From Lachnospiraceae bacterium (lineage in GTDB: Bacteria; Bacillota; Clostridia; Lachnospirales; Lachnospiraceae): a stretch of DNA of 44,058 nt. Location of the stretch: the NCBI GenBank assembly GCA_021199475.1, contig JAJQHZ010000085.1, positions 98,089 to 142,146 of the forward strand, read 5' to 3'. The notes under the pieces were generated by a model that was not told the origin of the DNA, made no database searches, and saw nothing but the letters and a program-made list of their open reading frames with translations. A program made the translations under genes and the position numbers. Shown piece by piece: positions 2,851 through 33,629 of this stretch. Positions within the stretch are counted from its first letter, which is position 1; each line of letters opens with the position of its first letter.

Positions 2851-2854
2851 GTAA

Positions 2855-13017: not shown

Positions 13018-16000
13018 ACAGGAAATTTTCATCGACGCGGATGAAGATGATATTTTTGCGGTCAAATATACCATTACAATAACGAATACGACAGCGGATG
13101 CGGACGCGGAGGCTGTGACGGTAAAGGCGGTGCTTGGGGAAAATCTGTCCTGGTACGAGAAGGACGATGACACAGAGGCACTGTATTTTATTGGGGATAT
13201 TTCGAATCTGACGGACGTTCCGCAGGGGTATGACCTGGACGAGCTGACAGAGTACGTGGAAAACCATATAGCGTCTGCAAAGAGTGCAGAGGAAGTGCTG
13301 GAGCCGTATGCTTCGGCTGTTGTTTGGGCGGATCAGACCATCGCCGCTGGGGAAGAAAAGGAGTATGTCTTCTATGCGATGGCCGCGGAAGGGATCACCA
13401 CGACAGACGAGCTGTCGGCTCTTTATTTTGTGGACGGGGAGCAGGTCGAAAACACGGCGGAAGACCAGACGATCATTGAGTGGAAGAATGAGGAGCTGCT
13501 TGCGGAGAACGAGACGGAGGCCGAGACAGAGACGGAAGGCGAAACCGAGACCGAGAATAAAGAAGAGACAGAGACCCGGGCAGAGACTGAGACGGATTCT
13601 GAGATAGAAACAGAAGTTGCTGCGATAAAAGCCGAGTCTGAAGAGGAAACCGCGATTGAGACTGAGAACCAGACAGAAGAGATAACGGAGTCTGGATTGG
13701 AATCAGAAGCAGAGACGGAGTCTGTGCCAAAGACCGAAACGGAATCAGAAGCAGAATCGGAAACCGAATTAGAAACAGAAACTGAGATTGGCACCGAGCC
13801 AGAGCTAGAAACGGAAACCTCCCTGACATATGACGGTGGAGACTATACCGTTACAGTTACATACGGATCGGACGCGCGGCTGCCGGAGGGCGTGGAACTG
13901 CTTATATCGGAGTATGCAAATGATTCGGAAACCTGGCTGGCTCGATATGCCGAGGCGGCGCAGCTTTATGCGCTGGAAACCTTCCGGCTTTTCAGCATCG
14001 GACTGTATGTGGATGGTGAGGAAACAGAACCGGCCGCTGCGGTCAGCGTCGCCATCACCCTTCCCGGCGATCCGGCTGATGCGGAGGATCCCGGAAATGA
14101 AGCTTCCGCGGAAACTGTTTCAGCCGAAGCGGAACAGACAGAAGCAAATGCGGGGAACGGGGATGCGTCAGAAATAAACACAGCAGATGCATATACATCG
14201 GAAGAAGAGTTCCTCGAAGGTTCCATTGGAGCTTCCGTTGAGAATTCCATCTGCGTCATTCACTTTGGCGAAGAATCCGGAGAGGAGTCTGCCAGTGTCC
14301 TTGAGATCGAGACGGAATATTCGGACAGTGAGCAGATCATCACGTTCTCCTCGGATAGCTTTTCTGATTATGGCATCGCTGTGATATCGGACGAGGCTGC
14401 GGCCGTCAGTGAGACAGAGGAAGAGAACGCCGAGGATACAATTTCTACAAATCTGCAGGCTCTGATCAATCTGGCCGCGACTGCGACGGCAAATGTGCAG
14501 CTGGTCAGCAGCATGGAAGATGCATCCGGGGAGGAGACAACGACGGCAATCCTGACTGTGGAGACGGAGACTAATACGGATACGGCGGTGATTACTCTGT
14601 ATGCAGATTTTACGGAGAACCTGGAGATTCCGTCCGGCACGACGGTCACGATTGATTTGAATGGGCATACGATTGCTCCGGCAGAGACGGGAAGCGGCTC
14701 CGCAATTACTGTAAATGGAACGTTGACACTGACAGATAGCAGCAGCCCTGGGACGACGAATTCGTCTGCATCCGCGGGGACATTGGCGAATTCTGGGAGC
14801 CTGTCCGGCATTCGCGGCGTCCTGGTCGCATCCGGCGGTTCCTTTACGCTGGATGGCGGCACGATCAGTGGTTTTAGCACAAGCGGCAATGGCGGCGGCG
14901 TTTTGGTGAACAGCGGCGGCTCCTTTACGATGACTGGCGGCACGATAGCGAACAACACTGCTTCCGGATATGGCGGAGGAATTTATCTGGAAGATGCCTC
15001 GAATATTGCTGCATTTACGGGCGGTACGGTCAGCGGGAATACCGCGAGTCGCGGCGGCGGAGTCGCGTTCATGACCGCGTCGGACGGCATGGCAATCGGT
15101 CCGTCCGGATCGGACGATGATTCCTCTGATCCTGCGGAAGTGGATACGGCGGATAAAGTGCTGATTACAAAAAATACGTCCACAAGCTACGGCGGCGGTA
15201 TTTACGCAGTGTCAGCGACGAAAAATGCAGTGATACAGAATACGGTCGTCTCTTATAATACCTCTGCGGCGAGCGGCGGCGGCGTCTATTTCCCGGCCGG
15301 GTCGAGCGTGAGTATTTATTACACGAATGCAGACAACAATGTCATCTATGGATCCGGATCCATGACCGGCGGCGGTATTTGTGTGGAGAGCAGCACTGGT
15401 TCCAGGAGCACACTGGTTATGGTGGGCGGTACTGCTTCTTCTAATACAGTGACCAGTACGGATGATGCGGTTTGCTATGGCGGCGGAGTCGGCATGGGAA
15501 CCTGTGCGTCGGCCACAATAACAGATGTCACCGCCGATGGGAATTCAGGTGTCTGCAAAGGCGGCGGGATTGCGGTCGGGGAATCTTTTACCAAGGGGGA
15601 ATTTACGAATCTGACCGTGACTAATAATATTGCTAATAGTTGTGCAAGCCAGGGCGGCGATGGCGGGGGACTTTGGACCGGACAAGGCAATAGTACAGCT
15701 GTGATTTCAGGCGGAATTTACGCATATAATTGTGTTTACGGATTTGGCGGCGGCGTTTACCTTTTTACAAACGGAAAAATCACCGGAAACGCAAAATTTT
15801 ATGGAAATACATCAAAGTCCGGTAAAGTTGGCAGCCAGGGCGGCGGCGTCTTCTGCAGGAATCTGACAATTGAAAATGAGACAGCGGCCGGAACGGTAGA
15901 GGTCTATGAAAATACCGAATCCAACGGCAGCGGCGGTGGTATCTGCGCATATAATACAATTACTGTCGAAGAAAGCGCTAATCTGAAAATACATGGTAAT

Positions 16001-18277
16001 GAAGCGTCCTCAAATGGCGGTGGTATTTATATTGGGAGCTCTTCGGGTACTATCAGTGCCAGCATTTGCGGTTGTGTTGATATATATGATAATTCAGGAT
16101 CGAATGGAGGCGGGATTTATATCGGTAGCAAGGTTCCCGGTGTGTCTTTATCAGATTCGGTTTCTGTCCATGATAATACTGCCACAGGCAGCGGCGGTGG
16201 GATCTATGTGTCCGGTGAGTCTGACAATTCCTATATTTTTTCTATGACCGGCGGCAGCGTTTATAATAATACTGCTGTGAACGGGGGTGGGCTTGCAGCG
16301 GGCGATTATTCAATCGTGAAAATGACCGGCGGCACTGTAACAGAAAACACAGCGAGCACCTACGGAGGAGGCGTGTGGGTATCAGGAAATTCGGCGTCAT
16401 TTGAGCTGGCAGAGGATACGGTTGCCGGGACGGTTGGACGGATTTGCGATAACATTGCCAGCCTGGGGCAGGACGTGTATGCGGCTTATACCGCGAGCTA
16501 CGCGAATACGGCACTGACACTGATCGCGGCTGCGGATATGTTTGATGACACTGATAATGTGACGGAGATCGGCTGGCTGGATGAGACGACAGAGCTTACC
16601 ACGACAGAGATGATTGCCCATAATCCTGTGAAGAGGGTTTATCCGCTGACCCTCAGCTATATATCGACGACAACTGTGGCGGTGGTGTGGAATCATTCAG
16701 ATGATACATACGATGAGTTTACCACAGTCCAGGCGGCGGTTGACGCTATATACGCAGATAAAAGTGCAGAACAGCAGGTTTATTACAGTGACACGGTCAC
16801 AAGCCCGGAGATCATACTTGTCGACAACGCGCGGGAAAGTGTGGAGGTGTCAGGCGGAACCGTCCTCACTCTGAATCTGAACGGCTACCTGCTCAAAGGG
16901 AGTCCGACGGCTATTGGCTGCTATGGGACGCTTACGATTCAGGACATGCAGTATACGACCGGAGCCGACTCGGGCAGCGAGACCTACTGCGAACACTATG
17001 ATGCTCTTGTGGAGATTAATAAAAAAGTACACGAGGACGAGACAGACGAAGATGGGAATGCCCTGATCACCGGTGCGGGCGCGGGTGAGGATTCGATCGG
17101 CACGATTACAGGCTCCGCATCGATGGCGGGCGGCGGCGTCCATGTGTATTCAGGCGGCTATGTGACGATGATAAGCGGCCAGATTGCGGACTGTGTAGCA
17201 GGCAGCGCTTCGAATACCAATTATTATGGCGGCGCGGGCGTATGTGTTGAGAGCGGCACGTTTATCCTTGGCGGGACAGCCTCGATTAACAATTGCACAA
17301 CGAAATCCTATGGCTCGGCAGTCTATATCACGGCCGCGTCCGGTGTGTTTATCCTGCAGGATGACGCAGTCATCGAGGAGAACAGCGCGTATCGCGGTAC
17401 GGTTGCTGTGATGAACGGCACGTTCCAGATGACGGGTGGCACGATTCAAAACAATACGGTAACACAGTATGGCGGCGGTGTCTATGTGACGGGCGGCACA
17501 TTCCGGATGTCTGGCGGTACTATAAGCAGCAATACTACGCAATATGGCGGGGGTGTTTTCCAGAGTTCCGGTACGGTCAGGCTGACCGGCGGTACGATTT
17601 CCGGCAATACGGTTACGAATCGCGGAGGCGGAATCTATCTGAGCTCCGGCACGATGACGCTCAGTGGCGTTACAATTTCGGAAAACGTAGCCACATCCGA
17701 CACCAGCGCGACAAATATTCTTTATGGAACCGGCGGGGGAATTTATGTCAACGGCGGTACGCTCTCAATCAGGAGAGGTACTGTCATTTTCCAAAATACA
17801 GCGAATCGCGGCGGCGGTGTTTATCAGTACAATGGCACAATTACCATGAGCGGCGGACAGATCACGCGAAACAGTGCGGAGCATGGCGGCGGACTCGCGC
17901 AGTATCCGACCTATCCGGGAACCTTCACGCTCTCCGGCGGAGTACTCTGTGACAATACATCTACCGCCGATGGCCTGGGTAATGATGTTTATTCCATGGA
18001 GGAATCGGGCTATACCTATAGTTCCAGCGGCGTGGGTTATCCATCCGCGACCCTGATGCGCGCGGCGGATATGGACTACACGGATGAGAGCTATGCCGCA
18101 GACTATAATGTGTGGAGGGATGACAACTACAGCGGAGACGATGATGACAGCGAAGGTGAGACCATCAACAGCGGACATTACGTGACCGGGACGATTGTTT
18201 CCAGCCATAGCCTGCAGCTGACGGCAGATAAGCACGGGGATACCACAGCGACAGAAGCGGAAACAACGACCTATTAA
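12896..18277 (+). CDS. Giant adhesin, central beta-helix fragment
   Basis: Open frame of 1,793 residues; meaningful protein starts after the G tract (about 12990), since the first 31 residues are out-of-frame reading of the stalk. A folded N-terminal domain (VEYALNTRIEQEIFIDADED onward) and a Glu/Thr-rich spacer are followed by two blocks of right-handed beta-helix repeats, at about 14,560-16,480 and 16,840-17,990. These have the GGGIYV/GGTISGNTA pattern of polymorphic or autotransporter-like adhesins. There is no start codon with a ribosome site and no sortase signal. The frame ends at TAA (18275-18277) and continues unbroken in the same frame after it. It would be extracellular and probably adhesive. 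Confidence 0.8.
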   Translation: MRILLRRIRRRSRKRPIRMPPLSRKIARRGGVEYALNTRIEQEIFIDADEDDIFAVKYTITITNTTADADAEAVTVKAVLGENLSWYEKDDDTEALYFIGDISNLTDVPQGYDLDELTEYVENHIASAKSAEEVLEPYASAVVWADQTIAAGEEKEYVFYAMAAEGITTTDELSALYFVDGEQVENTAEDQTIIEWKNEELLAENETEAETETEGETETENKEETETRAETETDSEIETEVAAIKAESEEETAIETENQTEEITESGLESEAETESVPKTETESEAESETELETETEIGTEPELETETSLTYDGGDYTVTVTYGSDARLPEGVELLISEYANDSETWLARYAEAAQLYALETFRLFSIGLYVDGEETEPAAAVSVAITLPGDPADAEDPGNEASAETVSAEAEQTEANAGNGDASEINTADAYTSEEEFLEGSIGASVENSICVIHFGEESGEESASVLEIETEYSDSEQIITFSSDSFSDYGIAVISDEAAAVSETEEENAEDTISTNLQALINLAATATANVQLVSSMEDASGEETTTAILTVETETNTDTAVITLYADFTENLEIPSGTTVTIDLNGHTIAPAETGSGSAITVNGTLTLTDSSSPGTTNSSASAGTLANSGSLSGIRGVLVASGGSFTLDGGTISGFSTSGNGGGVLVNSGGSFTMTGGTIANNTASGYGGGIYLEDASNIAAFTGGTVSGNTASRGGGVAFMTASDGMAIGPSGSDDDSSDPAEVDTADKVLITKNTSTSYGGGIYAVSATKNAVIQNTVVSYNTSAASGGGVYFPAGSSVSIYYTNADNNVIYGSGSMTGGGICVESSTGSRSTLVMVGGTASSNTVTSTDDAVCYGGGVGMGTCASATITDVTADGNSGVCKGGGIAVGESFTKGEFTNLTVTNNIANSCASQGGDGGGLWTGQGNSTAVISGGIYAYNCVYGFGGGVYLFTNGKITGNAKFYGNTSKSGKVGSQGGGVFCRNLTIENETAAGTVEVYENTESNGSGGGICAYNTITVEESANLKIHGNEASSNGGGIYIGSSSGTISASICGCVDIYDNSGSNGGGIYIGSKVPGVSLSDSVSVHDNTATGSGGGIYVSGESDNSYIFSMTGGSVYNNTAVNGGGLAAGDYSIVKMTGGTVTENTASTYGGGVWVSGNSASFELAEDTVAGTVGRICDNIASLGQDVYAAYTASYANTALTLIAAADMFDDTDNVTEIGWLDETTELTTTEMIAHNPVKRVYPLTLSYISTTTVAVVWNHSDDTYDEFTTVQAAVDAIYADKSAEQQVYYSDTVTSPEIILVDNARESVEVSGGTVLTLNLNGYLLKGSPTAIGCYGTLTIQDMQYTTGADSGSETYCEHYDALVEINKKVHEDETDEDGNALITGAGAGEDSIGTITGSASMAGGGVHVYSGGYVTMISGQIADCVAGSASNTNYYGGAGVCVESGTFILGGTASINNCTTKSYGSAVYITAASGVFILQDDAVIEENSAYRGTVAVMNGTFQMTGGTIQNNTVTQYGGGVYVTGGTFRMSGGTISSNTTQYGGGVFQSSGTVRLTGGTISGNTVTNRGGGIYLSSGTMTLSGVTISENVATSDTSATNILYGTGGGIYVNGGTLSIRRGTVIFQNTANRGGGVYQYNGTITMSGGQITRNSAEHGGGLAQYPTYPGTFTLSGGVLCDNTSTADGLGNDVYSMEESGYTYSSSGVGYPSATLMRAADMDYTDESYAADYNVWRDDNYSGDDDDSEGETINSGHYVTGTIVSSHSLQLTADKHGDTTATEAETTTY
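12981..12989 (+). repeat. G9 homopolymer tract at the adhesin frameshift
   Basis: Nine Gs between GAGGC and TGGAA. With nine Gs the signal-peptide frame ends at 13017; with eight (or eleven) it enters the adhesin body. Confidence 0.9.
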
Positions 18278-18304
18278 GTAAAATCCCTCGAGCTTACAAA
18301 AATT

Positions 18305-21300
18305 GTGGACGGGACATCTTACTGGGACTCGTCTGACACGGGCGCCGTGACCGCATATAAGAAGGACGCTGAAACCGATGAAACAGATACCAGTCTCACA
18401 TGGAACAGTACTTCCGCGGATAATCCGCTGGCGGCCGAATGGACGGCCGGGAATGACTCAAATGCCTCAAATGGCCTGGTGCGCACGTATGACAGGCTGT
18501 CATATAGCTTTACCGCATACCCCGAGGACAGTGCGGCAACGGAAACCGAAAGCGAGAGTGAGACCGAAGGCGGGAGCACCGGCAGCACGGAAAGCACCGG
18601 AAGTGCAGTCGCGGCATCTGACAGCGCGGATGACAGCAGCAGTGCTTCTGCTTCGAAGACAATTCGTGTCTATGTGGAAGTGACGCTTCCGCTCTCAAGC
18701 GCGGAGGCGGAGTTTTACTCGAATACGCTGGATTCTTCTGAGGTTATCGAGTCGGATGACGGAGAGTCACAGACGCTTCTGGGATATAAGGAAACGACGG
18801 CGGGAGGAGGTTCCGCAAGCTTTACGGTTACATTAAATATCAAGGCAATGCAGAATGGGGACCTGGTGGAGCCGGTTTTCCGGTCATGGGTGGAAGGAAA
18901 TGAAGAAAATGAAAAAGAACCGACAGAGTCAACGCCGACTGCTGTGACGGTATCTGCGGCCGGTATGTACAACCTGACGCTTCTGCGCAATACCGAGCTC
19001 TCCTATACGGGGTATTTTGATCTTGGCACAGGCCAGGAAACGACAAAGGACGCGTATGAGGCGGCGAAGGAAAGCGGAGATGAGTCCATTGTCTACGGCA
19101 CGATGCTCGGCTACGGCGTCACGGTCTCCATGCGGAACACCATTACATCGAAAGGCAAGAAAGGGATGGAATCGCCAGTCGGAGAGATCGAATTTGACCT
19201 TTCGATGACCGGCGCCCTGTATCTGGACGGAGTTGCGGTGACAGACACCGATGGAAGTGAAGTATATGAGGCTCCCTATATATGGGCTTACAAGGCAAAT
19301 GAAAATACGGAAAGCGGAAGCAGCCTGAACGATACGCTGCGGAACGTCAACATGAACTGGAACGATGAGGATGATGCGTCCAGCACGACACAGTATGCGT
19401 ACGACGCGGCTCCGTATAATGTCGGCGGAAATAGTACAAGCTGCTATTCCGGCGGCGCGTGGTCAGCGGCCGGCAGTCAGCCGTCTTCCACGGACACTGA
19501 GACGACGGTGCATTTTTCCGTCAGCGGCTATACGATCGACACGAGCTACAGCAATTATTACCCGAATGCTGCCTCTAGCGGGGACACCACGTATTTTACA
19601 GGCAGCTACATCAAGCCATTTTCCGCAGGCTATATACAGGTGATTTTCCCGATTGATACGAGCGTGATCGGGGATGACACCGGGTATCTGTCCATCAGCA
19701 TGAAAGGGATCGTATCGGACCTGGATATTTCCGATTCACGGGGGACAGCAAGCGGCAGTGATACGAGCGATTCGGCAGCGGATGACCTGAAATTTATGGT
19801 GGAGTGGTATGAGACAACGGAGTATGCGGAGCATTCGACCTGTGAGGTTACCTATCTGGACAATTATACGTCCACGGTGACGGGGCTTTATGTGACAAAT
19901 GGGTCCGGAGAGGTCATCATAAAGACCAATTATTTTAATAATGAGTCGAACAGCACTCTGTCCGGGGAAAATGGCAATGGCTCAACGCCAATTGATTCAA
20001 CGGTGTATATCGGCAGCGATATCAATTTTGACAGCAACGAATATACAACAACGGACGAAACTTCAATACATTATAATAAAGATTTTGACAGCGCGACGGA
20101 CAATATCATTGAATATGATTACCTGACGGCTGTGAACCTGCTGCAGAAGTTTGACGCTGAGGCGTATACGCCGTCCAGCACCTCGCTTGAAATTGTGAAT
20201 CAGACCTATACGCTTACATCTGCAACGAATAATATTACAGATGCTAGCGGAAACACGATATTCCGGATTACGACGACGGAGAGTGCGACCTTCTGGTCGA
20301 CCAGTAAGACGAGAAGCTATACGCTGACTATCCTCTACGCGGCGAAGTCGGATGGTTCAAACTGGACGTATTCTGCAGATGAGCAGGGTTACAGCTCGCC
20401 GGTGGCTGATATGGATGCGGCGACCGAGGAGGATCTGATTTATTTTACAACTCTCCAGGCTCTCTATGACTATTTCGGCGGAAAGGGCGTGTGCGTGGGC
20501 ATCCTGTATGAATTCCGCGACTGCTGCATCCGCAATGACAGGAGCATTTCCGTGACCGCGCGGATGGATGTGACGGATGATTTTGAAAAAGCAGGCCTGA
20601 CCTTCTGTATTACCAATGACGTCCTTGGCTGGACGACCTACCGTCCGGAGTATAAGTCCGCCTACGCCGCGGGGACATTGAGCGGGCAGCTTTACAGCTT
20701 TTCGTGGGCGAACGTGGACAGTGGAAATGGATATTACGGCACCGGTGATGGCACTTTTCCGAAAAGTTATTATGACGCATATACAGCATACGAGGACGCG
20801 AGCGGGGGCTATGGGTACAGAGGAAAGGCGAAAATTGAACGATATGATAATGACTACGTAAAAACAGAGTATGAAAGCGGCTGGATGGTCGGGAGTACGC
20901 ACACCGGCTGGTGGTCAGGGAATACATTGCTTCTGTACACGATGGACAGCAATATCGACATCGAGGTCGCCGACATTATCGAGGGTTCCAATGATACGCC
21001 CAAGACGGAGTATGATCTTGGGAAAGGGGAGCGGACAGCCAGCTTTGTCGTGACGCCGACGATAGCGACCTCCAGCAGTGTGAGCAACGAGCTCGTGACG
21101 AACGGAACGCAGTCGGCAGAGGTGGAGATTACGATTACCCTGCCGAAGCATCTGAATTTTGACGAGGGAAGCCTGACATTTGACTACAGTGATTCCGATT
21201 ATGAGGACGGAGGCCTGTCCTGGGAAATTACCTATACGGAAAATGAAGACGGAACGACTACCATCGTCCTTTCCACGAGCGTGACGGACATCAGCAAGAC

Positions 21301-24088
21301 GTTGCCGACCATCGAGTACACCTGCACGATTGGAAAACCGGGAGCGGCGGAAAGCGATGAAGATGAAGTGACGAATGGAGAAACACTGACTTCTACTGCG
21401 ACGATTAACACGACTTATGAAGAGAACGGACAGAGCAGTACCTATGCAAAGGAAGACTCTGTGACCATCTCCGTAGTCAGGACGACAGCGGACAACATCT
21501 GGATTGAGGCAGACGGCAGAGTGGAGCTCGGAGAAGATCTGGTCTACACGCTGCACTATTCCAACACTGCGGTTACTACATCCTCCATCTTGATTGGCGA
21601 TGTGCTTCCTTACAATGAGGATGGAAGAGGGACGTCGTTTAGCGGCGGTTATCAGGTGACGCAGATCACTCTGACGTTTGGTGATGAAACAACTTATCAA
21701 GAGTTTCTTTACAGCGGGGTGATCTCCTTTGCGGCCGGAGTGACCTACAGCACGGAATCGGCTGATCAAATTGCAATACTGAATGCTTTGGCGGACACTG
21801 ACAGCGGTAATAGAACTGTCATTTATACGAGCGACAGCTCGACAGGAGTTACGACGAAGAATGATTCGGAAAGTAGTACCTGGACGCTCACACTTGACCT
21901 GACAATTCTGGATGATGATACGCAGACGGCACTGACGCAGCTTGCAAACACAGAGACAGGAATTGCGTTTTATTTCGGCGTGCTGAATGTCTCGGGACAG
22001 TCTTCTGTGCAGATCGACTTTACGCTTTCACCGGACGTAACGGTTGAAGTGAATAGCGCTGCATATTCGACCCTGATCGGTGACGGGGATGGTTCCGTGC
22101 AGGAGGGCGGAGACGTATATCAGGACAATATGTTCTACAAGCTGTCTACCGGTAATATTGCGGTAATGAGCAATTCCGTGAAAATCACCGCGGTGGAGCG
22201 CACCCTCTCGGGCATCGCGTGGCTCGACCAGGATCACGACGGGCTCTATAATACCGTATCAGGAAGCACGGACAAGACGATGGAAGGAATTGACGTGTAC
22301 CTGTATACGACAACCGCTCCGAGTCAGTCGGATTTCTATACAGGAGCCCTTGTGACTGAGACCACGGATAGCGAAAGCGGAACGATCTGGACACAGACAG
22401 TGACGACTACGACGAGCAGCACGGATGGAGAAGGTAATACAGTGACCACAGAAACAACAGAAACAATAGAACTTGGCACGCTGACGATCACAGCCGCTGA
22501 TGGAACACCTGTTACCCTGTATCCCGCAATCGATGTCCTCGGGAATCTTGTCGCATCGCGGACAACAGGCTCAAATGGCGCGTATTCTTTTGGGCAGCTG
22601 GCGGAAGGAACCTATTATGTCATATTCCAGGATGATAGAGATAATTACACTCTGGCAGGGAGCAGCGGCAGTGCCCCACTGTCCTTCGGGCAGCTGAGCG
22701 TAACAGTAAACAAATCCTCCACGTCAGTAACCGGTGCTTACAACCGCGCATCGGCGTACTATGGCAGTAATTCCGACGCGGATGGCAGTCCTGCAAAGCT
22801 TGTGCTGGCGGACATCCCCGGCATCAGCCTGCCCGCTCTTGCAAGCATCTATGGCAGCTCCTATGAGAAAAACAATCAGAACGCTGGATTCTACTATATT
22901 GAGCTGAATCTTGAAAAAGTGTGGGAGAATATCATAGATGAAGTCAGTGCGGGGGCGACTGTGGAATTTACCGTGACCGGTACGTCACAGGGAACATATT
23001 CCTCTACGGATACCGGGACAGGAGAGACCGTAGAGACAGCTTATGAGTATGAGAACAGTTATGTTTTGTCACAGGAATCAAATACGACATCCACAGCCGA
23101 AGGAGAGGTTTCAGGAAAAGTTTCCGCAAAAGCAGAGGAGACAGAGAGCAGTATAGCGTTTGAAGTAGTAACTGTCAGTGGGACAGGAACTAAGACAGCG
23201 GCGCAGTCTGCGGGTTATGCTGCCCCGTCCCTGACGGTGTCCGAAACCACTGATTCCAACACAAATCTGAAGACAGTTACCTGGACGTTGGGAACCATCG
23301 CGCTGCAGGCAGAAGATACTTTCGGCGTGATCGATTACAGCGCAGTTGAAGCGGCTTATGCCGACAGCAACAAAAAAGAAGAACTGGTCGGCTTTGTGAC
23401 AGCAGTGGCTGCCGAGACAAAGGATTCGACGATTACCTTTACGGCGACAAACACCCAGGTTTTGTATGAGCTGGAGCTGTACAAAATCAGCATAAGCAAT
23501 AGCACTACATCGTACCTTTCCAATGCGACGTTCACGCTGTACAGCGGTCCGAATTGTACTGCAGGTACTGAGGTGACATCCATTTCGGGAAGTGCGTCCG
23601 CCGTATCCGGTGCGGATGCTTCAAGCGATGCGACAAGTGCTGATACGGAAAATGGAAAACTCTATATCGGAAAGCTCGCCGCGGGCACCTACTACCTGAA
23701 AGAGACCGTCGCGCCGTCCGGATATACGCTGAACCAGAGCGTGTGGAAGATCGTCATCTCGTATAATAAATCTACTCCAACGACACCAGTGATTACAGTG
23801 ACGCTGGTGAAAGATGCGGACGGGAATGAGATAGCGAATCCGACTAAATTCCAATCGTCCACTGTAACAACGGGCGGTACGGAGAAAGTGTATGTGACGC
23901 CTGATACCAGTACGTCTGAAGGCACCGATACGTTATACACCATATCATTCCAGATGGCAAACGAGATTATCTACGCTCTGCCGCAGACCGGCTCCATCGG
24001 CATCGCCTGGCCAACACTTGCCGGCATTGCGCTGATGCTCGCGGCCTTGGTGATGAACGAAAGAAAGAAGTGGAGGATAAATGCGTGA
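18305..24088 (+). CDS. Giant adhesin, C-terminal fragment with LPQTG anchor
   Basis: 1,927 residues from a GTG at 18305 that has no Shine-Dalgarno site; the frame is in fact open from 18278, directly after the TAA, and reads VKSLELTKIVDGTSYW, a typical junction into a Cna-like domain. It contains several large beta-rich domains, an SdrD B-like repeat (about 22,200-22,700, WLDQDHDGLYN), and a SpaA-type domain (about 23,460-23,760) whose LKETVAPSGY carries the Glu of an isopeptide fold. The sorting signal LPQTG is at 23978-23992, followed by a hydrophobic helix and a basic tail. It should be the wall-anchored end of the adhesin, but without read-through it would not be exported. Confidence 0.82.
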   Translation: MDGTSYWDSSDTGAVTAYKKDAETDETDTSLTWNSTSADNPLAAEWTAGNDSNASNGLVRTYDRLSYSFTAYPEDSAATETESESETEGGSTGSTESTGSAVAASDSADDSSSASASKTIRVYVEVTLPLSSAEAEFYSNTLDSSEVIESDDGESQTLLGYKETTAGGGSASFTVTLNIKAMQNGDLVEPVFRSWVEGNEENEKEPTESTPTAVTVSAAGMYNLTLLRNTELSYTGYFDLGTGQETTKDAYEAAKESGDESIVYGTMLGYGVTVSMRNTITSKGKKGMESPVGEIEFDLSMTGALYLDGVAVTDTDGSEVYEAPYIWAYKANENTESGSSLNDTLRNVNMNWNDEDDASSTTQYAYDAAPYNVGGNSTSCYSGGAWSAAGSQPSSTDTETTVHFSVSGYTIDTSYSNYYPNAASSGDTTYFTGSYIKPFSAGYIQVIFPIDTSVIGDDTGYLSISMKGIVSDLDISDSRGTASGSDTSDSAADDLKFMVEWYETTEYAEHSTCEVTYLDNYTSTVTGLYVTNGSGEVIIKTNYFNNESNSTLSGENGNGSTPIDSTVYIGSDINFDSNEYTTTDETSIHYNKDFDSATDNIIEYDYLTAVNLLQKFDAEAYTPSSTSLEIVNQTYTLTSATNNITDASGNTIFRITTTESATFWSTSKTRSYTLTILYAAKSDGSNWTYSADEQGYSSPVADMDAATEEDLIYFTTLQALYDYFGGKGVCVGILYEFRDCCIRNDRSISVTARMDVTDDFEKAGLTFCITNDVLGWTTYRPEYKSAYAAGTLSGQLYSFSWANVDSGNGYYGTGDGTFPKSYYDAYTAYEDASGGYGYRGKAKIERYDNDYVKTEYESGWMVGSTHTGWWSGNTLLLYTMDSNIDIEVADIIEGSNDTPKTEYDLGKGERTASFVVTPTIATSSSVSNELVTNGTQSAEVEITITLPKHLNFDEGSLTFDYSDSDYEDGGLSWEITYTENEDGTTTIVLSTSVTDISKTLPTIEYTCTIGKPGAAESDEDEVTNGETLTSTATINTTYEENGQSSTYAKEDSVTISVVRTTADNIWIEADGRVELGEDLVYTLHYSNTAVTTSSILIGDVLPYNEDGRGTSFSGGYQVTQITLTFGDETTYQEFLYSGVISFAAGVTYSTESADQIAILNALADTDSGNRTVIYTSDSSTGVTTKNDSESSTWTLTLDLTILDDDTQTALTQLANTETGIAFYFGVLNVSGQSSVQIDFTLSPDVTVEVNSAAYSTLIGDGDGSVQEGGDVYQDNMFYKLSTGNIAVMSNSVKITAVERTLSGIAWLDQDHDGLYNTVSGSTDKTMEGIDVYLYTTTAPSQSDFYTGALVTETTDSESGTIWTQTVTTTTSSTDGEGNTVTTETTETIELGTLTITAADGTPVTLYPAIDVLGNLVASRTTGSNGAYSFGQLAEGTYYVIFQDDRDNYTLAGSSGSAPLSFGQLSVTVNKSSTSVTGAYNRASAYYGSNSDADGSPAKLVLADIPGISLPALASIYGSSYEKNNQNAGFYYIELNLEKVWENIIDEVSAGATVEFTVTGTSQGTYSSTDTGTGETVETAYEYENSYVLSQESNTTSTAEGEVSGKVSAKAEETESSIAFEVVTVSGTGTKTAAQSAGYAAPSLTVSETTDSNTNLKTVTWTLGTIALQAEDTFGVIDYSAVEAAYADSNKKEELVGFVTAVAAETKDSTITFTATNTQVLYELELYKISISNSTTSYLSNATFTLYSGPNCTAGTEVTSISGSASAVSGADASSDATSADTENGKLYIGKLAAGTYYLKETVAPSGYTLNQSVWKIVISYNKSTPTTPVITVTLVKDADGNEIANPTKFQSSTVTTGGTEKVYVTPDTSTSEGTDTLYTISFQMANEIIYALPQTGSIGIAWPTLAGIALMLAALVMNERKKWRINA

Positions 24089-24360
24089 AAAGCATAAATG
24101 CGTGAAATGCGGATAAGGGAAAGAAAAATCTCTGGAAAATACATAGATGAGAAGCAGGTGTATGAAAAACAAATAAAAAAGTGAAAATGGGGGTGGATGA
24201 CGGATGAATAAAAAGCAAATACGGAAGGAACAGGCATATAAAAAACATACCGGGAAAATTCGCGACGGATAAGAAATGATGGAATCTGATAAAACAAGTA
24301 AAGCAATGGTAATGGTGGCGGATAGATAACGGCAAAATTTAGAAAAGAGAGGTAATAAGC
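24089..24360. other. Purine-rich intergenic region before the first pilin
   Basis: Mostly A/G-rich sequence with scattered GGATAA and TGCGTGAAA words and no supported gene on the + strand. Long leftward open frames here reflect the biased composition and lack ribosome sites. GAGAGGTAA near 24348-24356 supplies the pilin ribosome binding site. Confidence 0.5.
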
Positions 24361-26377
24361 ATGAAGAAACTATTGAAAAAAGCGCTTCCGCTGCTGATGG
24401 CGGCGGCATTTGCGCTCGTGGGGGGGGGTGACAGCCGGAGCGGCGTCGTCTATAACTACATCAAATACTGAGGGCAAAACAACGGTTGTGACCAATTCAA
24501 CACAGGTTACGATTTCAAATGTCCCGAGTGGCTATGATACAACAAATTCGACGGAAAACACAGATGATGATTTGACCTACGTGACCTATCAGGTGATCTA
24601 TGCCACGTATGATTCCACGACAAACGTGGTAAGCTGGCATCTGACCGATTGGGCGAAAGCGGCATTGGTTGATACATCTGACACACCTGCCAGCGGTACA
24701 TACACATCAGAAGAAGCCGCACTGGCGGCCATTTCCGCTATGACTGGTAAGACCGGATCAACAGGAACCACAAACCCAGAGCAGAATACAATCGTCAATA
24801 CGCTGGCGGCTTACATTGCTTCTACGGCGAATAGCACGAAAGCAACGGCGAATTCCTTTGAATCGGGTACCGAATGGACCGGTTGGAGTACAGCCACAGC
24901 AAGCGGTGCCAGCAGTGCGACATCTACCGCGACGCTCGAAGTGGGCTCCTATCTGGTAATTGCGTCCGCAGCGGATATGTCCTTTTTAAACATGATGGTG
25001 AGCGTAGACGTGAGCAGCACGCCCGACGGAACCGGAACAGGCGCAAGCACAGCGACTGATGGATGGGTACTCAAAGCGAAAGATGCCGTTTTGAAAGGAA
25101 ACGAGTTGACCATCACGAAGACGGTAAACGATACAGGGACAGCAAGTACCTATACAGAATCCGCGTCTGCACAGGTCGGAGATACCGTGTATTATTCCGT
25201 TCAGGTGTCCGTGCCTCATTTTGCAGTCAATGACAGTAAACACATATTTGTGGTGACCGACGTTGCAAACAATCTGGATATTGTGGAAAACAGCATAACC
25301 GTGACAGGGTATAAAACCGGCAATACGACTGGTACACAATTAACAAAAGAAACTTCCAGTGAATCCGTTACTGCAACAGCTGGATACAAAGCTTCTGTAT
25401 CAACATCCAGTGATGGAAATACCGATACTCTGACGGTTACGTTCACTGATTATTATCATAATACAAACGTGTTTTACACAACATCAAATGGCGTGACGAC
25501 TTACTATTATGATTATGTAATCATCACTTATCGGGCTACGCTTCGCTCATCGGCTATTGTGGTTTCGGAGAGCAGCAGCACCGGAAACAGCAACACAGCT
25601 ACCATGACCTATAATTACGATAACCACAGTGAAGAGAGCATTGCCGACGATGCAACGGTCTACACCTATGGACTGAACCTGACGAAGTACAATGATAAAA
25701 CAGGCAGCGATCAGACCGCACTGTCCAACGCTACCTTTAAAATCTATTATTTTAATGCTGGCAATAAAACGTACCTGAAGTTCACCGGCTCGAACGGTTC
25801 GTACGCAGTGAGTACGACGAATGATGCTTCAGAGGGAGTGACGACTTCAAGTAGTGGAACACTTTCCCTGACAGGTCTCGATGCAGATAAGACCTATTAT
25901 CTGGAAGAGACAACGGCGCCATCCGGATATACGCTGAATACGGACACCCTGGCGTTCCAGATCACGGATTATACGGATGCTACTAATTTGACATATCCGA
26001 ATGGCACGATTGATCTCTTATCGCTGGCAGAGTATTCTGGTACGGTATCGTCTGATAGTAAGATACTGGTGTACGCCTGGACAGACGCGAGTGGCGGAAC
26101 CAACACGATTGCTACAAATTCGGATAGTTCGGCAGAAGTTGACAGAACCTGGACTGCAGCGCGAAATTCAAATACGAGTGCGGATTCAAATGATACATCA
26201 TATACAGGTACATTCAGCACAACCGTAATCGATACAAAAATCGCCGCCCTTCCGGCGACGGGAAGCATCGGCATCATTGTATTTACGATCGCCGGTGTGA
26301 TCATCATGATACTGGCGCTGGTTCTGATCAATTCAGGCAAAAGCAGAGAAAAAGCAGGACAGGGAATGAAAAGATAA
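24361..26377 (+). CDS. LPATG pilin with signal peptide broken by a G9 tract
   Basis: The ATG at 24361 begins MKKLLKKALPLLMAAAFALV, a clear signal peptide, but nine Gs (24420-24428) divert the frame to a TGA at 24469-24471 after 36 residues. With eight Gs it continues as GGVTAGAASSITT into a 655-codon open frame, giving about 671 residues. The mature part has a fimbrial D2-type isopeptide domain (KTVND, then VGDTVYYSVQVSVP), a SpaA domain ending YLEETTAPSGYTLN, and the sorting signal LPATG (26249-26263) with helix and basic tail. It is a substrate for the sortases at 30508 and 31591, and is paralogous to the next gene. As given, no exported pilin would be made. Confidence 0.85.
24420..24428 (+). 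repeat. G9 homopolymer tract inside the pilin signal peptide
   Basis: Nine Gs between CTCGT and TGACAGCC. Eight Gs join the signal peptide to the pilin. The register problem is the same as at 12981-12989. Confidence 0.9.
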
Positions 26378-26666: not shown

Positions 26667-28469
26667 ATGAAAAGAATGTGGAAAAAGATGGCAGCATTGC
26701 TCATGATGATGGCGATGGTGCTGGTTATGGGGACGGCAGCAGGAGCGGAAACGCTTTCTGTTGACAGTAATGATGGTAACAAGGTTACAAACACGACAAG
26801 CGTATCAATCACAAGTGTGCCGAATGACGCGGCAAATTTGTCTTATTCCACCTATCAGGTAATCTATGCGACCTATGACAGTACGTCAAATTCGTTTGAG
26901 TGGTATCTGACTGATTGGGCAAAGAGTGCATTGGTTGGTGATAGCGGTAAACTTTATACAACGGAATTAGCTGCACTTACGGATATTTTTGCTCTGACCG
27001 GCTCAGATGGAACCGGGCTTGAAGGCCAGTCCCAAGGAACATCCACGACAGAACAGAATACGATCGTGAATACGCTGGCGGCGTATATCGCAGATTCTAC
27101 TAATGCTGTCAGTGCCATTGGTACGATTTGGTCTACTTCCGGAACGACATCATCCGCGACACTTGCCGTCGGCGCTTATCTGGTGATTCCGTCAGCGACA
27201 AACATGTCCTTCTTAAATATGCTGGTGAGTGTGGACGTGTCCGGAACAACAGAAACATCCGCTTCTGATTGGACGCCGACATCCCACGGTGCGGTATTAA
27301 AAGGCAACAAGCTGACAATCGAAAAAACTGTGAGCGACACGGAGAACGGAACATACGGTGCATCAGCGGATACACAGATTGGGGCGACCGTATACTATCA
27401 GGTCAAAGTGAATGTCCCGAAGTTTGCTGCAAATGACAGTGAGAAAAGCTTTACTGTAGTGGACGTAGCAAACAATTTAAAGATTGATTCTACATCTGTT
27501 GTGGTGACACCGTATGATTCAAGCGATAAAGCAGGAACAGCGCTGACACTTTACAATGGAAAAACAGATTCAGACAGCAACGCTTTAACAGCAGGATATG
27601 CTTTGAATGTTTCGACATCCAACAATACGGATACGATGACTGTTACTTTTACAGGATATTATGATAATGTATTCTATAATAGCAGTGCAAAAACATATCC
27701 TTATGAGTATGTCATCATTTCGTACGAGGCAGAACTGCTTTCTTCTGCGGTGACTTATACCAGTAACGGAAATGACAATACAGCGACGTTGACCTACGAT
27801 TATGACAACCATACCTCAAATACGGCATCTTCAAAGGCAACGGTATATACGTATGCTTTGGATCTGACAAAGTATGGGGCGAATACATCAGGAACAACAC
27901 TAGCCAATGCGTCCTTTAAGATTTACTATTATGACAACAGTGGTACTGCTAAATATTTACGTTTTATAAAGAATACAGATGGTTCTTTCAGCGTGGCAGA
28001 CAGCACGGATGAAGCTGATTCTACGGTTACAAAATATGATGCAGTTACAACCACGTTAACCGGCACGCTTACCCTGACCGGCCTGGATGACGATGTGGAT
28101 TATTTCATCGTTGAGTCCGTGGCGCCGTCCGGATACTCGTTGAACACAAATATTTTGAACTTTAAAATTGCAGAATCATCGACAGCAGCAGGTACGATTG
28201 ATGCAGTTACTTCATATGAGTATGCGGCCTATACATATAGTGGATCGAATACTGCTTTGAGCTCCGATAAGACAACATGGACGGCAGCTAAGGAGACAAC
28301 AACAACCAACAGTGCGAAACTCACTCTGTCCGTCACCGATACAAAAATCGCCGCCCTCCCCGCGACCGGCAGCATCGGTATCATCGTCTTCACCATCGCG
28401 GGTGTTGCGATCATGATCCTGGCTCTGGTGCTGATTAATTCGGGGAAGAACAAAGCAAAAAAGGCTTGA
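26667..28469 (+). CDS. LPATG pilin, intact
   Basis: 600 residues from the ATG at 26667, placed after AAAAGGAGAG (26651-26660). A signal peptide (MKRMWKKMAALLMMMAMVLV, cleavage near AGA-E) leads into a domain shared with the previous pilin (SYSTYQVIYATYDST, IVNTLAAYIA), a D2-type isopeptide domain (IEKTVSDT, VYYQVKVNVPKF), a SpaA domain (IVESVAPSGYSLN) and LPATG (28356-28370). The VNVPKF Lys is His in the first pilin, which may mean this one is the polymerising backbone; that is an inference. The C-terminal signals of the two pilins are nearly identical in protein but differ at many silent sites, so they are old paralogues. Confidence 0.9.
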   Translation: MKRMWKKMAALLMMMAMVLVMGTAAGAETLSVDSNDGNKVTNTTSVSITSVPNDAANLSYSTYQVIYATYDSTSNSFEWYLTDWAKSALVGDSGKLYTTELAALTDIFALTGSDGTGLEGQSQGTSTTEQNTIVNTLAAYIADSTNAVSAIGTIWSTSGTTSSATLAVGAYLVIPSATNMSFLNMLVSVDVSGTTETSASDWTPTSHGAVLKGNKLTIEKTVSDTENGTYGASADTQIGATVYYQVKVNVPKFAANDSEKSFTVVDVANNLKIDSTSVVVTPYDSSDKAGTALTLYNGKTDSDSNALTAGYALNVSTSNNTDTMTVTFTGYYDNVFYNSSAKTYPYEYVIISYEAELLSSAVTYTSNGNDNTATLTYDYDNHTSNTASSKATVYTYALDLTKYGANTSGTTLANASFKIYYYDNSGTAKYLRFIKNTDGSFSVADSTDEADSTVTKYDAVTTTLTGTLTLTGLDDDVDYFIVESVAPSGYSLNTNILNFKIAESSTAAGTIDAVTSYEYAAYTYSGSNTALSSDKTTWTAAKETTTTNSAKLTLSVTDTKIAALPATGSIGIIVFTIAGVAIMILALVLINSGKNKAKKA

Positions 28470-28542
28470 CAGTAACTTTTCGGAGACAGTACTTCGTAAT
28501 TGCAGCGATGTAAGCCAGACAAAACAATGGGGGAGATAGTGT

Positions 28543-28695: not shown

Positions 28696-28713
28696 TTCCC
28701 GGGGGCAGAAAGA

Positions 28714-30507: not shown

Positions 30508-31572
30508 ATGAGAAGGATCAGACAGAGCGAAAAGACAACTGAGGGGCGAAGAAGGAATCCGGCCCTGCTTCTGCTGTTTGCGGCGGGATTTCTGCTGGTG
30601 CTGTATCCAGTGGTCGGCAACCTCTGGAATTCCTACCGGCAGCATCGGCTGGCGAATACCTATGAGACAGCCGTGGAAAGCCTGGATGAGGATCAGTATG
30701 AGGAGCTGTGGGAGGAAGCCAGGGAATACAATGCTTCCCATACGCCTTACTCGGTGCCGGACGCGTTTGCCGTGAGCGAAGTGCTTGCTGAGGAGGAGGA
30801 CGAAGAATATCTGGTGTATGAGAGTCTCCTGAATGTAGCAGGCGACGGCATTATGGGTTATGTGGAAATTCCGAAGATTGACATAAAGATTCCGATTTAC
30901 CACGGGACGGAGGATGAGGTGCTGGCAAAAGGAGCCGGTCATTTGTACGGATCCTCTCTGCCGGTCGGCGGCGAGGGGACGCATGCGGTGATTGCGGCGC
31001 ACCGGGGATTGCCTTCGGCCCCGCTTTTTACCGATCTGGATCTGCTGGAGGAGGGAGACCAGTTTTATCTTTACATTCTGGATGATATCCTCGCCTATGA
31101 GGTAGATCAGATTCTTGTGGTGGAGCCGGAGGAGACGGAGTCTCTGGTGCAGACGCCGGGCGAGGATTACGTGACACTTGTGACCTGTACGCCTTATGGG
31201 GTGAATACGCAGCGGCTGCTGGTGCGCGGACACCGGGTGGAGTATACGGCAGAGCGGTATGAGGAGGAGGCGAAAAAAAAGACCTCTTCGCTGGTGACGA
31301 ATTATGTGTTGGTGGCGCTGCTTGGTTTTCTGATCGTGGCGGTGGCGGCCGTGCTGATCCGTATGTATTACCGCAGGAAGGCGGCGGCTGCGGGGAATAG
31401 TGATAGTTTGACCGGAAAAGACGGAGACTTTGCAGGAGATCGTGATGATTCGACCGGAAAAGACGAAGACTCTGCGGGAGACAGTGCGGCTTTGACTGGA
31501 AAAGGTGAGGATTCTGCAGGAGATCGTGAGACTTTGACTGGAAAAGATGAAGATTCTGCAGAAGATAGATAG
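30508..31572 (+). CDS. Class C (pilin-polymerising) sortase with repeated C-terminal tail
   Basis: 354 residues. An N-terminal transmembrane helix (about 18-36) is followed by the sortase domain: His165 (AAHRGLP), Cys227 (TLVTCTPYG) and Arg236 (NTQR), spaced as in known SrtC enzymes. A second transmembrane helix (about 262-286) and the basic RMYYRRK identify class C. Beyond this lies an unusual acidic tail of four 14-residue repeats, predicted cytoplasmic. The enzyme should join pilins by cutting their LPXTG motifs and linking them to a pilin Lys. A second sortase follows 18 bases later. Confidence 0.93.
   Translation: MRRIRQSEKTTEGRRRNPALLLLFAAGFLLVLYPVVGNLWNSYRQHRLANTYETAVESLDEDQYEELWEEAREYNASHTPYSVPDAFAVSEVLAEEEDEEYLVYESLLNVAGDGIMGYVEIPKIDIKIPIYHGTEDEVLAKGAGHLYGSSLPVGGEGTHAVIAAHRGLPSAPLFTDLDLLEEGDQFYLYILDDILAYEVDQILVVEPEETESLVQTPGEDYVTLVTCTPYGVNTQRLLVRGHRVEYTAERYEEEAKKKTSSLVTNYVLVALLGFLIVAVAAVLIRMYYRRKAAAAGNSDSLTGKDGDFAGDRDDSTGKDEDSAGDSAALTGKGEDSAGDRETLTGKDEDSAEDR
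31402..31569 (+). repeat. Four 42-bp coding repeats in the sortase tail
   Basis: Units such as DSLTGKDGDFAGDR and ETLTGKDEDSAEDR, four in tandem, end exactly at the stop codon of the first sortase. They are absent from the second sortase. Confidence 0.88.
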
Positions 31573-31590
31573 AATGGAAGGGGCCGGATA

Positions 31591-32565
31591 ATGCGTTCAG
31601 AGAAGGGGCAGAATAAGCACCGGGAAAAAGCGCGGACAAGGAAGATTAACCTGCGCATTTTGCTGGGTGTTCCGGTTTTCCTGTTGGGGTTGGGTGTGGT
31701 GCTTTACCCGGCGGTGAGTAATCTCTGGAACCAGTACCGGCAGTCGAGGCTCACGCAGAGCTATGAACAGGCAGTCGAGGAGGCCGCAGCGGAAGATCTG
31801 TCCGCAATGTGGGAGGCGGCACGGGAGTACAACGCGAACCTGACCGGGAATCTGATCGGCGACGCGTTCGAGGGAGTTTTGGAGACGGAAGAAACGGCGG
31901 CCCTCTCCGGAGCGGAAACAGTGGCAGACGAAGAAACCGAGACGGAGGCACTTTCTGCGGCGGAGGCGGACACGCTTTATCAGTCGCTTCTGAACCTTGC
32001 GGGGGATGGTATCATGGGATATCTTTCCATCCCGAAAATCGATGTTTACCTGCCGATCTATCATGGTACGGGTGTGGAGGAGCTGCAAAAAGGAATCGGA
32101 CACCTCTACGGCACGTATCTGCCGGTCGGCGGAGAGGGTACGCATACGGTACTTGCCGGGCATCGGGGCCTGCCGTCCGCAGCGATGCTGACGGATCTGG
32201 ATTTGCTGGAGGTGGGAGATTATTTTTACCTGTATATTCTGGACGATATCCTTGCCTACCAGGTGGTCGGGATTGAGGTGGTGGAGCCGGAAGAGACGGA
32301 CAGCCTCGCGGCGCAGGCGGGGGAGGATCTTGCCACGATTGTGACCTGCACGCCGTATGGAGTGAATACCCAGCGGCTGCTGGTGCACGGGTCGCGGGTG
32401 GAGTATGTTCCGGACATGGAACAGGAGCAAGGGAAGACGCAGGCCGAACAGATTCTGAGCCTGCACGGATATGCGTGGATGGCCTACGGACTTCCGGCGA
32501 TCGGAATTCTGTTTGTATTGCTGCTGGCGCTGCTTTTACGTGCGAGGCGGCGGAGACGGCGATAA
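31591..32565 (+). CDS. Class C (pilin-polymerising) sortase
   Basis: 324 residues, paralogous to the preceding sortase. An N-terminal transmembrane helix (about 17-36) precedes a Glu/Ala-rich segment (about 90-125), then the sortase core with His191 (AGHRGLPS), Cys253 (TIVTCTPYG) and Arg262 (NTQR). A C-terminal helix (about 295-318) and a short RRRRR tail follow. GGAAGGGGCC (31575-31584) precedes the start. Two sortases in one locus usually divide labour between shaft polymerisation and attachment of tip or base subunits; which does what cannot be read here. Confidence 0.93.
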   Translation: MRSEKGQNKHREKARTRKINLRILLGVPVFLLGLGVVLYPAVSNLWNQYRQSRLTQSYEQAVEEAAAEDLSAMWEAAREYNANLTGNLIGDAFEGVLETEETAALSGAETVADEETETEALSAAEADTLYQSLLNLAGDGIMGYLSIPKIDVYLPIYHGTGVEELQKGIGHLYGTYLPVGGEGTHTVLAGHRGLPSAAMLTDLDLLEVGDYFYLYILDDILAYQVVGIEVVEPEETDSLAAQAGEDLATIVTCTPYGVNTQRLLVHGSRVEYVPDMEQEQGKTQAEQILSLHGYAWMAYGLPAIGILFVLLLALLLRARRRRRR

Positions 32566-32744: not shown

Positions 32745-33629
32745 ATGGGTCGAAAAAAAGCGGGAAAAATCACACAGGAAAGAGCCGGATATGGAAAAAT
32801 CGGGTGTCTGCTGGCGTGCATATTTGCATTGCTGCTAAGCAGCGTTTTTGGTATGCGCACGACAGCGATGGAAACGGGGATCGATACGGAAGCAGCCGGT
32901 ACGCTGACCGTCAGCTATCGCTACGGGACCGACTCTGACGCGGATAAGAATCTTCCGCTTCCGGGGGCTGTTTTTCGTATCTATCGCGTTGCTGCTTATG
33001 ATGCGAACGGCGTACTTTCACTGACGCCGGAGTTTCAGGCATGCGGCGTGACGAATGAGCAGCTGAACAGCATGGAGCATGCTCAGGATTGGAACGCACG
33101 GATTGAAACGCTGGTACAGTATATAGGAACAGCAGGCACGGAAAGCGGGACGAGTGTGTATCAGAGTGCGAAGACGGACGAGAACGGTGCGGCGGTGTTT
33201 TCCAATCTGAAGACGGGTTTGTATCTTTTGACGGTAGATGATTTGACACTGGGCCAGACGAGCTACGCGGGCAGTCCTGCGCTTGTGAGTGTCCCGAGTG
33301 CCAATGAAGAAGGGACGGCCTGGGAGTATGAGGTGGCTGTAAGCGTAAAGCCGGAGGCGACGACAGAGACGGAATCCGAAAACGAGCCGGAGACCTCCGC
33401 GAAGGCGACAGAGCCTGCAAAGACGACAGAAGCTTCGACAGAACCGGAGGAATCGGCGGAGACAGCGGCGGAGGGTGCGTCCGATGAGACGGAAGCGGAA
33501 ACCACAGAATCGCCGCAGACAGGCGACGACGCCCTTTTGGGAGTCTGGCTCGCTGTTATGCTCGGAGCGTTTGGAGCGCTCATCCTTGCGGCGGCGTGGG
33601 AAATCCGGCGCGGGGGAACACGATTGTAA
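32745..33629 (+). CDS. Minor pilin with SPQTG sorting signal
   Basis: 294 residues behind GAGAGGAAAGG (32731-32741). A signal peptide (about 15-42) leads into one pilin-like beta domain with LPLPGAVFRIYRVA and GLYLLTVDDLTL blocks typical of SpaA-type prealbumin folds. A Thr/Glu-rich stalk (about 205-255) precedes SPQTG (33510-33524), a hydrophobic helix and a basic tail. It is small and carries a different sorting motif from the other pilins, so it is a candidate for the basal or anchoring subunit. It is the last gene of the pilus locus; a terminator follows. Confidence 0.88.
   Translation: MGRKKAGKITQERAGYGKIGCLLACIFALLLSSVFGMRTTAMETGIDTEAAGTLTVSYRYGTDSDADKNLPLPGAVFRIYRVAAYDANGVLSLTPEFQACGVTNEQLNSMEHAQDWNARIETLVQYIGTAGTESGTSVYQSAKTDENGAAVFSNLKTGLYLLTVDDLTLGQTSYAGSPALVSVPSANEEGTAWEYEVAVSVKPEATTETESENEPETSAKATEPAKTTEASTEPEESAETAAEGASDETEAETTESPQTGDDALLGVWLAVMLGAFGALILAAAWEIRRGGTRL

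What the first reader, a model, noticed from the sequence alone, without database searches (positions are those of the whole stretch)
24361..24471. Second G9 tract, inside a pilin signal peptide, with the same register
The next surface gene carries its own G9 tract at 24420-24428, between the hydrophobic core and the cleavage site of the signal peptide. Again eight Gs restore the protein, and nine give a 36-residue dead end. Two independent tracts of equal length in consecutive genes of one pilus locus, both off in the same register, suggest a combinatorial switch of adhesin and pilin, or a systematic base-calling error.
Basis: partly seen in the sequence, partly recalled or inferred. Interest (0 to 1): 0.82.

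Follow-up and report, generated by a model that had tools for sequence, protein, structure and literature searches.

The report
Poly-G on/off switch in pilin
A run of nine Gs inside the export signal of a hair-like surface protein gene puts the gene out of frame here, while related bacteria carry the same run at other lengths, some in frame; it looks like a random on/off switch for surface fibres, a kind of switch already known from bifidobacteria.

Summary
The G9 tract (24420-24428) is real and lies in the signal-peptide codons of a SpaA-type LPXTG pilin. The frame from ATG 24361 ends after 36 codons; the 648-codon pilin frame beyond is intact. Three genus-mates have an orthologous first pilin, each with a G run at the same place: G9 out of frame in two, G7 in frame in one. 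The second pilin has none in 6 of 6 genomes. The upstream adhesin has its own run in 6 genomes (G6 to G9; 2 in frame, 4 out). The four genomes with both runs show three on/off combinations, so they are not locked together and a shared systematic error is unlikely. Unrelated surface genes have such runs too: 27 examined sites, 11 in frame, 16 out. Best reading: phase variation by replication slippage; closest published case, the Bifidobacterium breve pilus switch. Caveats: no reads; only between-species variation seen; of the five out-of-frame surface genes in this genome two (adhesin, a C123 protein) also have an in-frame stop farther on, so some off states here may be permanent. New member of a known kind, with two runs in one pilus locus.

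The parts
24361..24471 (+). Start-frame ORF of the first pilin (pilin A): ATG, charged and hydrophobic signal-peptide part, stop after 36 codons
24420..24428 (+). G9 tract in signal-peptide codons; proposed slippage site
   Evidence: G run at the same place in G021, G008 and G011
24431..26377 (+). Downstream frame of pilin A (648 codons plus stop): SpaA domain, LPATG sorting signal
26667..28469 (+). Second pilin (pilin B), 57% identical to A, open 600 codons, no G>=6 run in its first 150 nt
12397..13017 (+). Start-frame ORF of the large surface protein (called adhesin here by inference), 206 codons, ending just after its own G9 tract
12981..12989 (+). G9 tract of the adhesin gene
12998..18277 (+). 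Adhesin frame beyond the tract, ending at an in-frame TAA (18275-18277) at a place that six of six relatives read across; no Pfam family found in this part
18278..24088 (+). Rest of the adhesin frame: SpaA domain; LPQTG-like anchor at the C terminus (anchor by eye)
30508..31572 (+). Sortase 1 (PF04203 1.5e-27)
31591..32565 (+). Sortase 2 (PF04203 3.8e-23)
32745..33629 (+). Small SpaA-type protein; likely minor or base pilin (inference)

Best explanation
The tract is a simple-sequence contingency site. Slippage of DNA polymerase on the G run changes its length in a few cells. Only lengths of one residue class mod 3 connect the start codon to the pilin frame, so cells switch reversibly between making pilin A (exported, cross-linked by the locus sortases) and making a 36-residue dead peptide. 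The adhesin upstream has its own tract and can switch independently; pilin B has none and is not switched this way. Shown here: anatomy, conservation of the tract in place, length and frame differences between species, intact frames behind most out-of-frame tracts. Inferred: that length changes inside one population, that the mechanism is replication slippage, that pilus composition follows, and which subunit is tip or shaft.
For: Orthologous pilin A tracts: own G9 out, G021 G9 out, G008 G9 out, G011 G7 in frame for 607 codons. Pilin B: no G>=6 run near the start in 6 of 6. Adhesin tract in 6 genomes, lengths 6 to 9, 2 in and 4 out. A second pilin locus on own contig C129 has G8 out of frame; similar pilins in G016 (one) and G015 (two) have G8 in frame. 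Another surface-protein family has a tract in its signal peptide at 11 sites, 5 in frame and 6 out. Of 12 G>=8 tracts in the own genome 5 lie in N-terminal parts of exported-protein genes, all with G on the coding strand and all out of frame. Behind the 16 out-of-frame tracts the frame runs on for 523 to 4805 codons without a further lesion seen in 13 (six of them read only to the edge of the fetched stretch). Of 91 tracts in seven genomes a frame of 150 or more codons begins at the tract only in the G sense in 38 and only in the antisense in 7, sign test 1.6e-06. The same arrangement was shown experimentally in B. breve (PMC9187656; abstract and sections 15, 21, 22 read).
Against: No reads and no second genome of the same species, so no within-population variation was seen. 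Pilin A is out of frame in 3 of 4 genomes, and all five surface-gene tracts of this genome are out of frame (chance about 0.13 if one state in three is on). Three of the 16 out-of-frame genes carry a further lesion: own adhesin (TAA), own C123 protein (TAG at L061:4649-4651) and G021 adhesin (second frame change at a G7 run), which speaks for lasting off states in some genes. The number of G>=8 tracts in the genome (12) equals what an order-3 model of the window expects (about 12; order 1 about 114; order 5 none). The strand bias may in part reflect the G-rich coding strand (positive GC skew over the window). MutS-family matches are present, so there is no sign of a mutator.
Confidence: 0.83

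Rival explanations
1. The tract lengths in this assembly are sequencing or assembly errors and the gene is in frame in the cells.
For: G tracts are hard to sequence: PMC9187656 reports that measured lengths can differ from the database sequence (section 22). Several runs in relatives lie at contig ends, and four of 95 are 19 to 52 Gs long. The sequencing method of the own genome is unknown.
Against: The tract itself is conserved in place. Lengths differ between separate assemblies with conserved flanks (7, 8 or 9 at offset 25 in one family, frame state following length). Two relatives match records with NODE-style assembler names, which usually means short reads (recalled).
Confidence: 0.08
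2. Pilin A is a recent pseudogene: the tract is a one-way frameshift.
For: Out of frame in 3 of 4 orthologues; two other out-of-frame surface genes of this genome also have a nonsense codon.
Against: Pilin A itself has 648 codons without a stop, conserved SpaA and LPXTG features, and the same long open frame (623 and 570 codons) behind the out-of-frame tracts of G021 and G008. A tract at the same place in four genomes would be an odd site for separate decay.
Confidence: 0.07
3. The frames are joined at expression by transcriptional slippage or ribosomal frameshifting on the G run, so some pilin is always made.
For: Long G runs are plausible slippage sites for RNA polymerase (recalled; PMC9187656 refers to such work).
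Against: In-frame and out-of-frame lengths both occur in relatives, which a fixed recoding site would not need. In B. breve pilus-like structures were seen on the in-frame derivatives in contrast to the parent (section 15).
Confidence: 0.1

Closest known systems
Sortase-dependent pilus G-tract ON/OFF switch of Bifidobacterium breve UCC2003 (bbr_0113 and bbr_1889; PMC9187656, abstract and sections 15, 21, 22 read)
   Same: Intragenic G tract between the secretion signal and the LPXTG part of a pilin in a sortase pilus cluster; short start ORF, main frame out of register; tracts also in related species.
   Different: Different phylum (two genus-mates match Lachnospiraceae and Clostridiales records). 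Two tracts in consecutive genes of one locus, then a second pilin without one; [quoted passage not shown] No experiment here.
Streptococcus gallolyticus Pil1 phase variation (PMC3894217; abstract and outline read)
   Same: Stochastic, repeat-length-driven expression of a Gram-positive pilus.
   Different: GCAGA repeats in a leader peptide acting through transcription attenuation, not a G run inside the pilin.
Poly-G contingency loci of Neisseria and Campylobacter (search listings only)
   Same: Homopolymeric G tracts in surface genes, several per genome.
   Different: Gram-negative hosts and other gene families.
5' homopolymeric tracts as a means of reversible inactivation (PMC2831843; abstract and outline read)
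   Same: A tract near the 5' end gives a very short product when out of frame.
   Different: That survey concerns poly(A) and poly(T) tracts.

Membership tests
Poly-G slippage phase-variable gene (contingency locus) | Homopolymeric tract long enough to slip, inside the coding frame near the 5' end | tested here: met
   G9 at offset 59 from the start codon
Poly-G slippage phase-variable gene (contingency locus) | Tract length decides whether the long frame is joined to the start | tested here: met
   27 examined sites, 11 in frame and 16 out; sequence level only; for 3 adhesin sites (G021, G011, G008) the start codon was outside the fetched stretch
Poly-G slippage phase-variable gene (contingency locus) | Tract length differs between related genomes at the orthologous place | tested here: met
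   pilin A G7 and G9; adhesin G6 to G9; a signal-peptide family G7, G8, G9
Poly-G slippage phase-variable gene (contingency locus) | Reversible length change within one clonal population with change of expression | not testable with these tools
   no reads, one genome per species
Sortase-dependent (SpaA-type) pilin | SpaA/Cna-B domain and LPXTG anchor, with a signal peptide | tested here: met
   profile matches pilins in the PDB, best 2.8e-17; signal peptide judged by eye and, in this genome, out of frame with the rest
Sortase-dependent (SpaA-type) pilin | Sortase genes in the same cluster | tested here: met
   two PF04203 genes at 30508-32565
Sortase-dependent (SpaA-type) pilin | Polymerised into fibres | not testable with these tools
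   needs microscopy or ladder immunoblot

The most novel reading that the evidence does not exclude
A genus of Lachnospiraceae runs a whole set of poly-G switches on its surface: adhesins, first pilins, large exported proteins and, it seems, glycan enzymes. The runs have arisen repeatedly inside signal-peptide codons of unrelated proteins, and in the pilus locus adhesin and first pilin switch independently while the second pilin stays on, so cells of one clone carry pili of different make-up.
Probability: 0.5. Interest if true: 0.7.

Novelty: new member of a known kind. Interest (0 to 1): 0.5.

Why it matters
Slippage switches are mostly known from pathogens (recalled) and, for pili of a gut commensal, from B. 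breve (PMC9187656). If this holds, a genus of Lachnospiraceae varies its pili and other surface proteins in the same way, so a consensus genome would call a pilin broken that part of the population makes. It also gives clear, countable sites for asking whether a host or phage selects for one state.

Tried and rejected
An own-genome pattern that required a non-T after the run missed the two window tracts and was replaced. Genome-wide excess of G tracts: not supported. A family-wide search for pilin A found none at 1e-20 in the other 396 genomes; it was an even draw from a larger group, at least one of the 396 is from the same genus, and at most three candidates per genome were scored for those listed. 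Re-initiation at TTG 24410 (ORF) was set aside because its product lacks the hydrophobic export signal. Promoter scan of 23900-28800: 10 sites against 8.3 in shuffles, uninformative. Rfam found nothing in the pilus locus.

Rows left out: in the strand count four of 95 tracts with 19 or more Gs were dropped (91 used). One search lists 79 tract rows in newly fetched loci; one search looked closely at 19 of them. Of the 19 hits, 18 were looked at: 17 were judged (10 with a run, 7 without), one (L148) begins inside the protein; the 19th (L147) is a second piece of the gene in L159. L152 lay near a contig edge and was misplaced; the same gene was read in L095. One further site (L075) came from the tract list, giving 11.

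Changed after checking: the count of examined sites is 27 (25 was a subset), an additional in-frame stop in the C123 gene was added, and the odds of the best reading went from 0.85 to 0.83 and of the pseudogene rival from 0.05 to 0.07 for that reason.

Full report
What is there. The window is a stretch of contig C37 of a 3.80 Mb, 165-contig genome. From 12397 to 33629 it carries a Gram-positive pilus locus: a very large surface protein (12397-24088; called adhesin here by inference) with a SpaA domain and an anchor-like C terminus, two tandem SpaA-type LPXTG pilins (A, start 24361; B, start 26667; 57% identical), two sortases and a small SpaA-type protein. The pilin profile matches solved pilins, best a FimA-like subunit at 2.8e-17.

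The tract. Nine Gs stand at 24420-24428, after the hydrophobic stretch of the signal peptide (by eye). From the start codon the frame closes after 36 codons; beyond the tract a different frame is open for 648 codons to the end of the pilin. The large upstream gene has the same situation at 12981-12989: 206 codons from the start, then a stop just past the tract. In both genes the two frames differ by the same one position.

Is it more than chance? The own genome has 12 G>=8 tracts. Five lie in N-terminal parts of genes for exported proteins: both window genes, a pilin on C129, a GLUG-motif protein on C123 and a transglutaminase/LRR protein on C160. One lies in a gene of a glycan-type locus on C142 that appears broken at two nearby points (by eye), and six are intergenic or unclear. 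The five surface-gene tracts have G on the coding strand and are all out of frame. The total of 12 is not an excess: models trained on the window predict about 114 (order 1), 12 (order 3) or none (order 5) for a genome of this size. So the argument rests on where the tracts are. In 91 tracts of seven genomes (own and six relatives; 95 found, four very long runs dropped), a frame of at least 150 codons opens at the tract only on the G strand in 38 cases and only on the other strand in 7 (sign test 1.6e-06; 36 against 5 of 82 when tracts near stretch edges are left out). Part of this may come from the G-rich coding strand (GC skew).

Relatives. A genus search found pilin relatives in 22 of 47 genomes. 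Four genomes, the own one included, have a pilin A, recognised by position and by a shared C-terminal tail. All four have a G run in the signal peptide: G9 out of frame (own, G021, G008), G7 in frame (G011, 607 codons). Pilin B or its counterpart has no G>=6 run near its start in 6 of 6 genomes and is open in all; single pilins of G012 and G013 have none there either. The adhesin tract is present in six genomes: G9 own, G8 G021, G8 G015, G6 G007, all out of frame; G7 G011 and G7 G008, in frame through more than 4900 codons (in G021, G011 and G008 the start codon lay outside the stretch). In a seventh, G013, the site has no G run and is in frame, but the gene breaks farther on, first at a G7 run. 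In the four genomes with both tracts the joint states (adhesin/pilin A) are off/off (own, G021), on/off (G008) and on/on (G011).

The same device in other genes. On own contig C129 a pilin with a GramPos_pilinBB domain has G8 just after the signal peptide, out of frame; similar pilins in G016 (one) and G015 (two) have G8 in frame, the distance from the start codon being different. A family of large exported proteins has a G run at about codons 9 to 11 at 11 examined sites: 5 in frame, 6 out, lengths 7, 8 and 9 at nearly the same offset. Seven other members have no run there and are in frame. With the two single own genes on C123 and C160, 27 tract-bearing sites were examined: 11 in frame, 16 out (the G015 adhesin tract position is). 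Five of the in-frame sites were read only to the edge of the stretch. These sites were chosen because they carry tracts or resemble genes that do; they are not a random sample.

Behind the tracts. In 13 of the 16 out-of-frame genes the frame beyond the tract runs on with no further lesion seen (523 to 4805 codons; six read only to a stretch edge, four or more hundred codons each). Three have a further lesion: the own adhesin (in-frame TAA at 18275-18277, a place that six of six relatives read across without a stop), the own C123 gene (in-frame TAG at L061:4649-4651, after which the same frame continues to an anchor-like end) and the G021 adhesin (a second frame change at a G7 run). Unless these are assembly errors, those genes could not be switched on by the first tract alone, and the adhesin-pilin pair would not be a working two-part switch in this strain.

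How it works. The simplest account is replication slippage at the G run, flipping pilin A on and off in a small part of the cells, with a second independent site in the adhesin gene. Shown: anatomy, conservation, length differences and frame states between species. Inferred: reversibility within a population, slippage as the cause, pilus composition as the outcome. B. breve UCC2003 offers the experimental precedent: G tracts in the first gene of two pilus clusters, a range of tract lengths in the population, pilus-like structures on in-frame derivatives in contrast to the parent, and enrichment of the productive length in mice (PMC9187656, abstract and sections 15, 21, 22). That paper also says that database tract lengths can be wrong, which applies here too.

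Alternatives. A shared base-calling error would not give lengths 6 to 9 with matching frame changes in separate assemblies, though any single length may be wrong. A dead gene would not be expected to keep 648 open codons behind a tract that has counterparts at the same place in three other genomes. Recoding at the RNA level cannot be excluded as an addition.

Print status. Open-access searches showed no paper on poly-G phase variation of pili in Lachnospiraceae among the rows listed: 20 of 73, 20 of 118, 20 of 215, 20 of 73, 10 of 10, 1 of 1, unrelated, 20 of 32, 20 of 120. Most subscription journals and all bioRxiv preprints are missing from the library, so this is weak evidence of novelty.

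Verdict. It is a new member of a known kind of system.

Noticed in passing
window 18275-18277: In-frame TAA in the adhesin gene; six of six relatives read across this place.
   Followed up: partly
L061:4649-4651 (own C123): In-frame TAG in the GLUG-motif surface gene, which is also out of frame at its G8 run.
   Followed up: partly
L063:3479-3487 (own C37:15478-15486): G9 run that starts at the end of a TTGCGG-like hexamer and is followed by TATAAT, about 240 nt upstream of the start of a very large exported protein gene; possible promoter-spacing switch.
   Followed up: no
L059:6082-6092 (own C146): G11 run about 470 nt upstream of the start of another pilin, which is followed by sortase-like genes (sortases by eye).
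   Followed up: no
L077 and L090 (G021:C47, G008:C40): G9 run about ten bases upstream of the start of a response-regulator-like gene in two genomes; possible switch of the ribosome-binding region (gene name by eye).
   Followed up: no
L098 (G015:C183): Two acyltransferase-like genes on one 3.4 kb contig, each apparently out of frame at a G run (G8, G9); glycosyltransferase-like genes in L101 and L102 have in-frame G8 runs (names by eye).
   Followed up: no
L025, reverse strand 2912-2918 (G013:C14): G7 run just before the LPATG anchor of the single pilin sits at a frame break, so the product would lack its anchor.
   Followed up: partly
L050:1125-1131 (G021): A second G run (G7) in the G021 adhesin sits at another frame change, about 550 nt after the first.
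   Followed up: no
L091, L093, L110, L145: Long G runs at contig ends, up to 52 Gs, as if assembly stopped there.
   Followed up: no
window 26627-26643: Short hairpin-like GGTG...CACC element about 24 nt upstream of the pilin B start; the same or a one-base variant stands upstream of pilins in G021, G011 and G008. No Rfam match there.
   Followed up: no
window 2853-2931: ZMP/ZTP riboswitch (58.4 bits) ahead of two genes that look like late purine synthesis genes (names by eye).
   Followed up: no
window 28714-30414: A small HTH gene and an AAA-ATPase-like gene (PF09820) lie between pilin B and the sortases; a similar-looking ORF at 10401-12089 was not searched.
   Followed up: no
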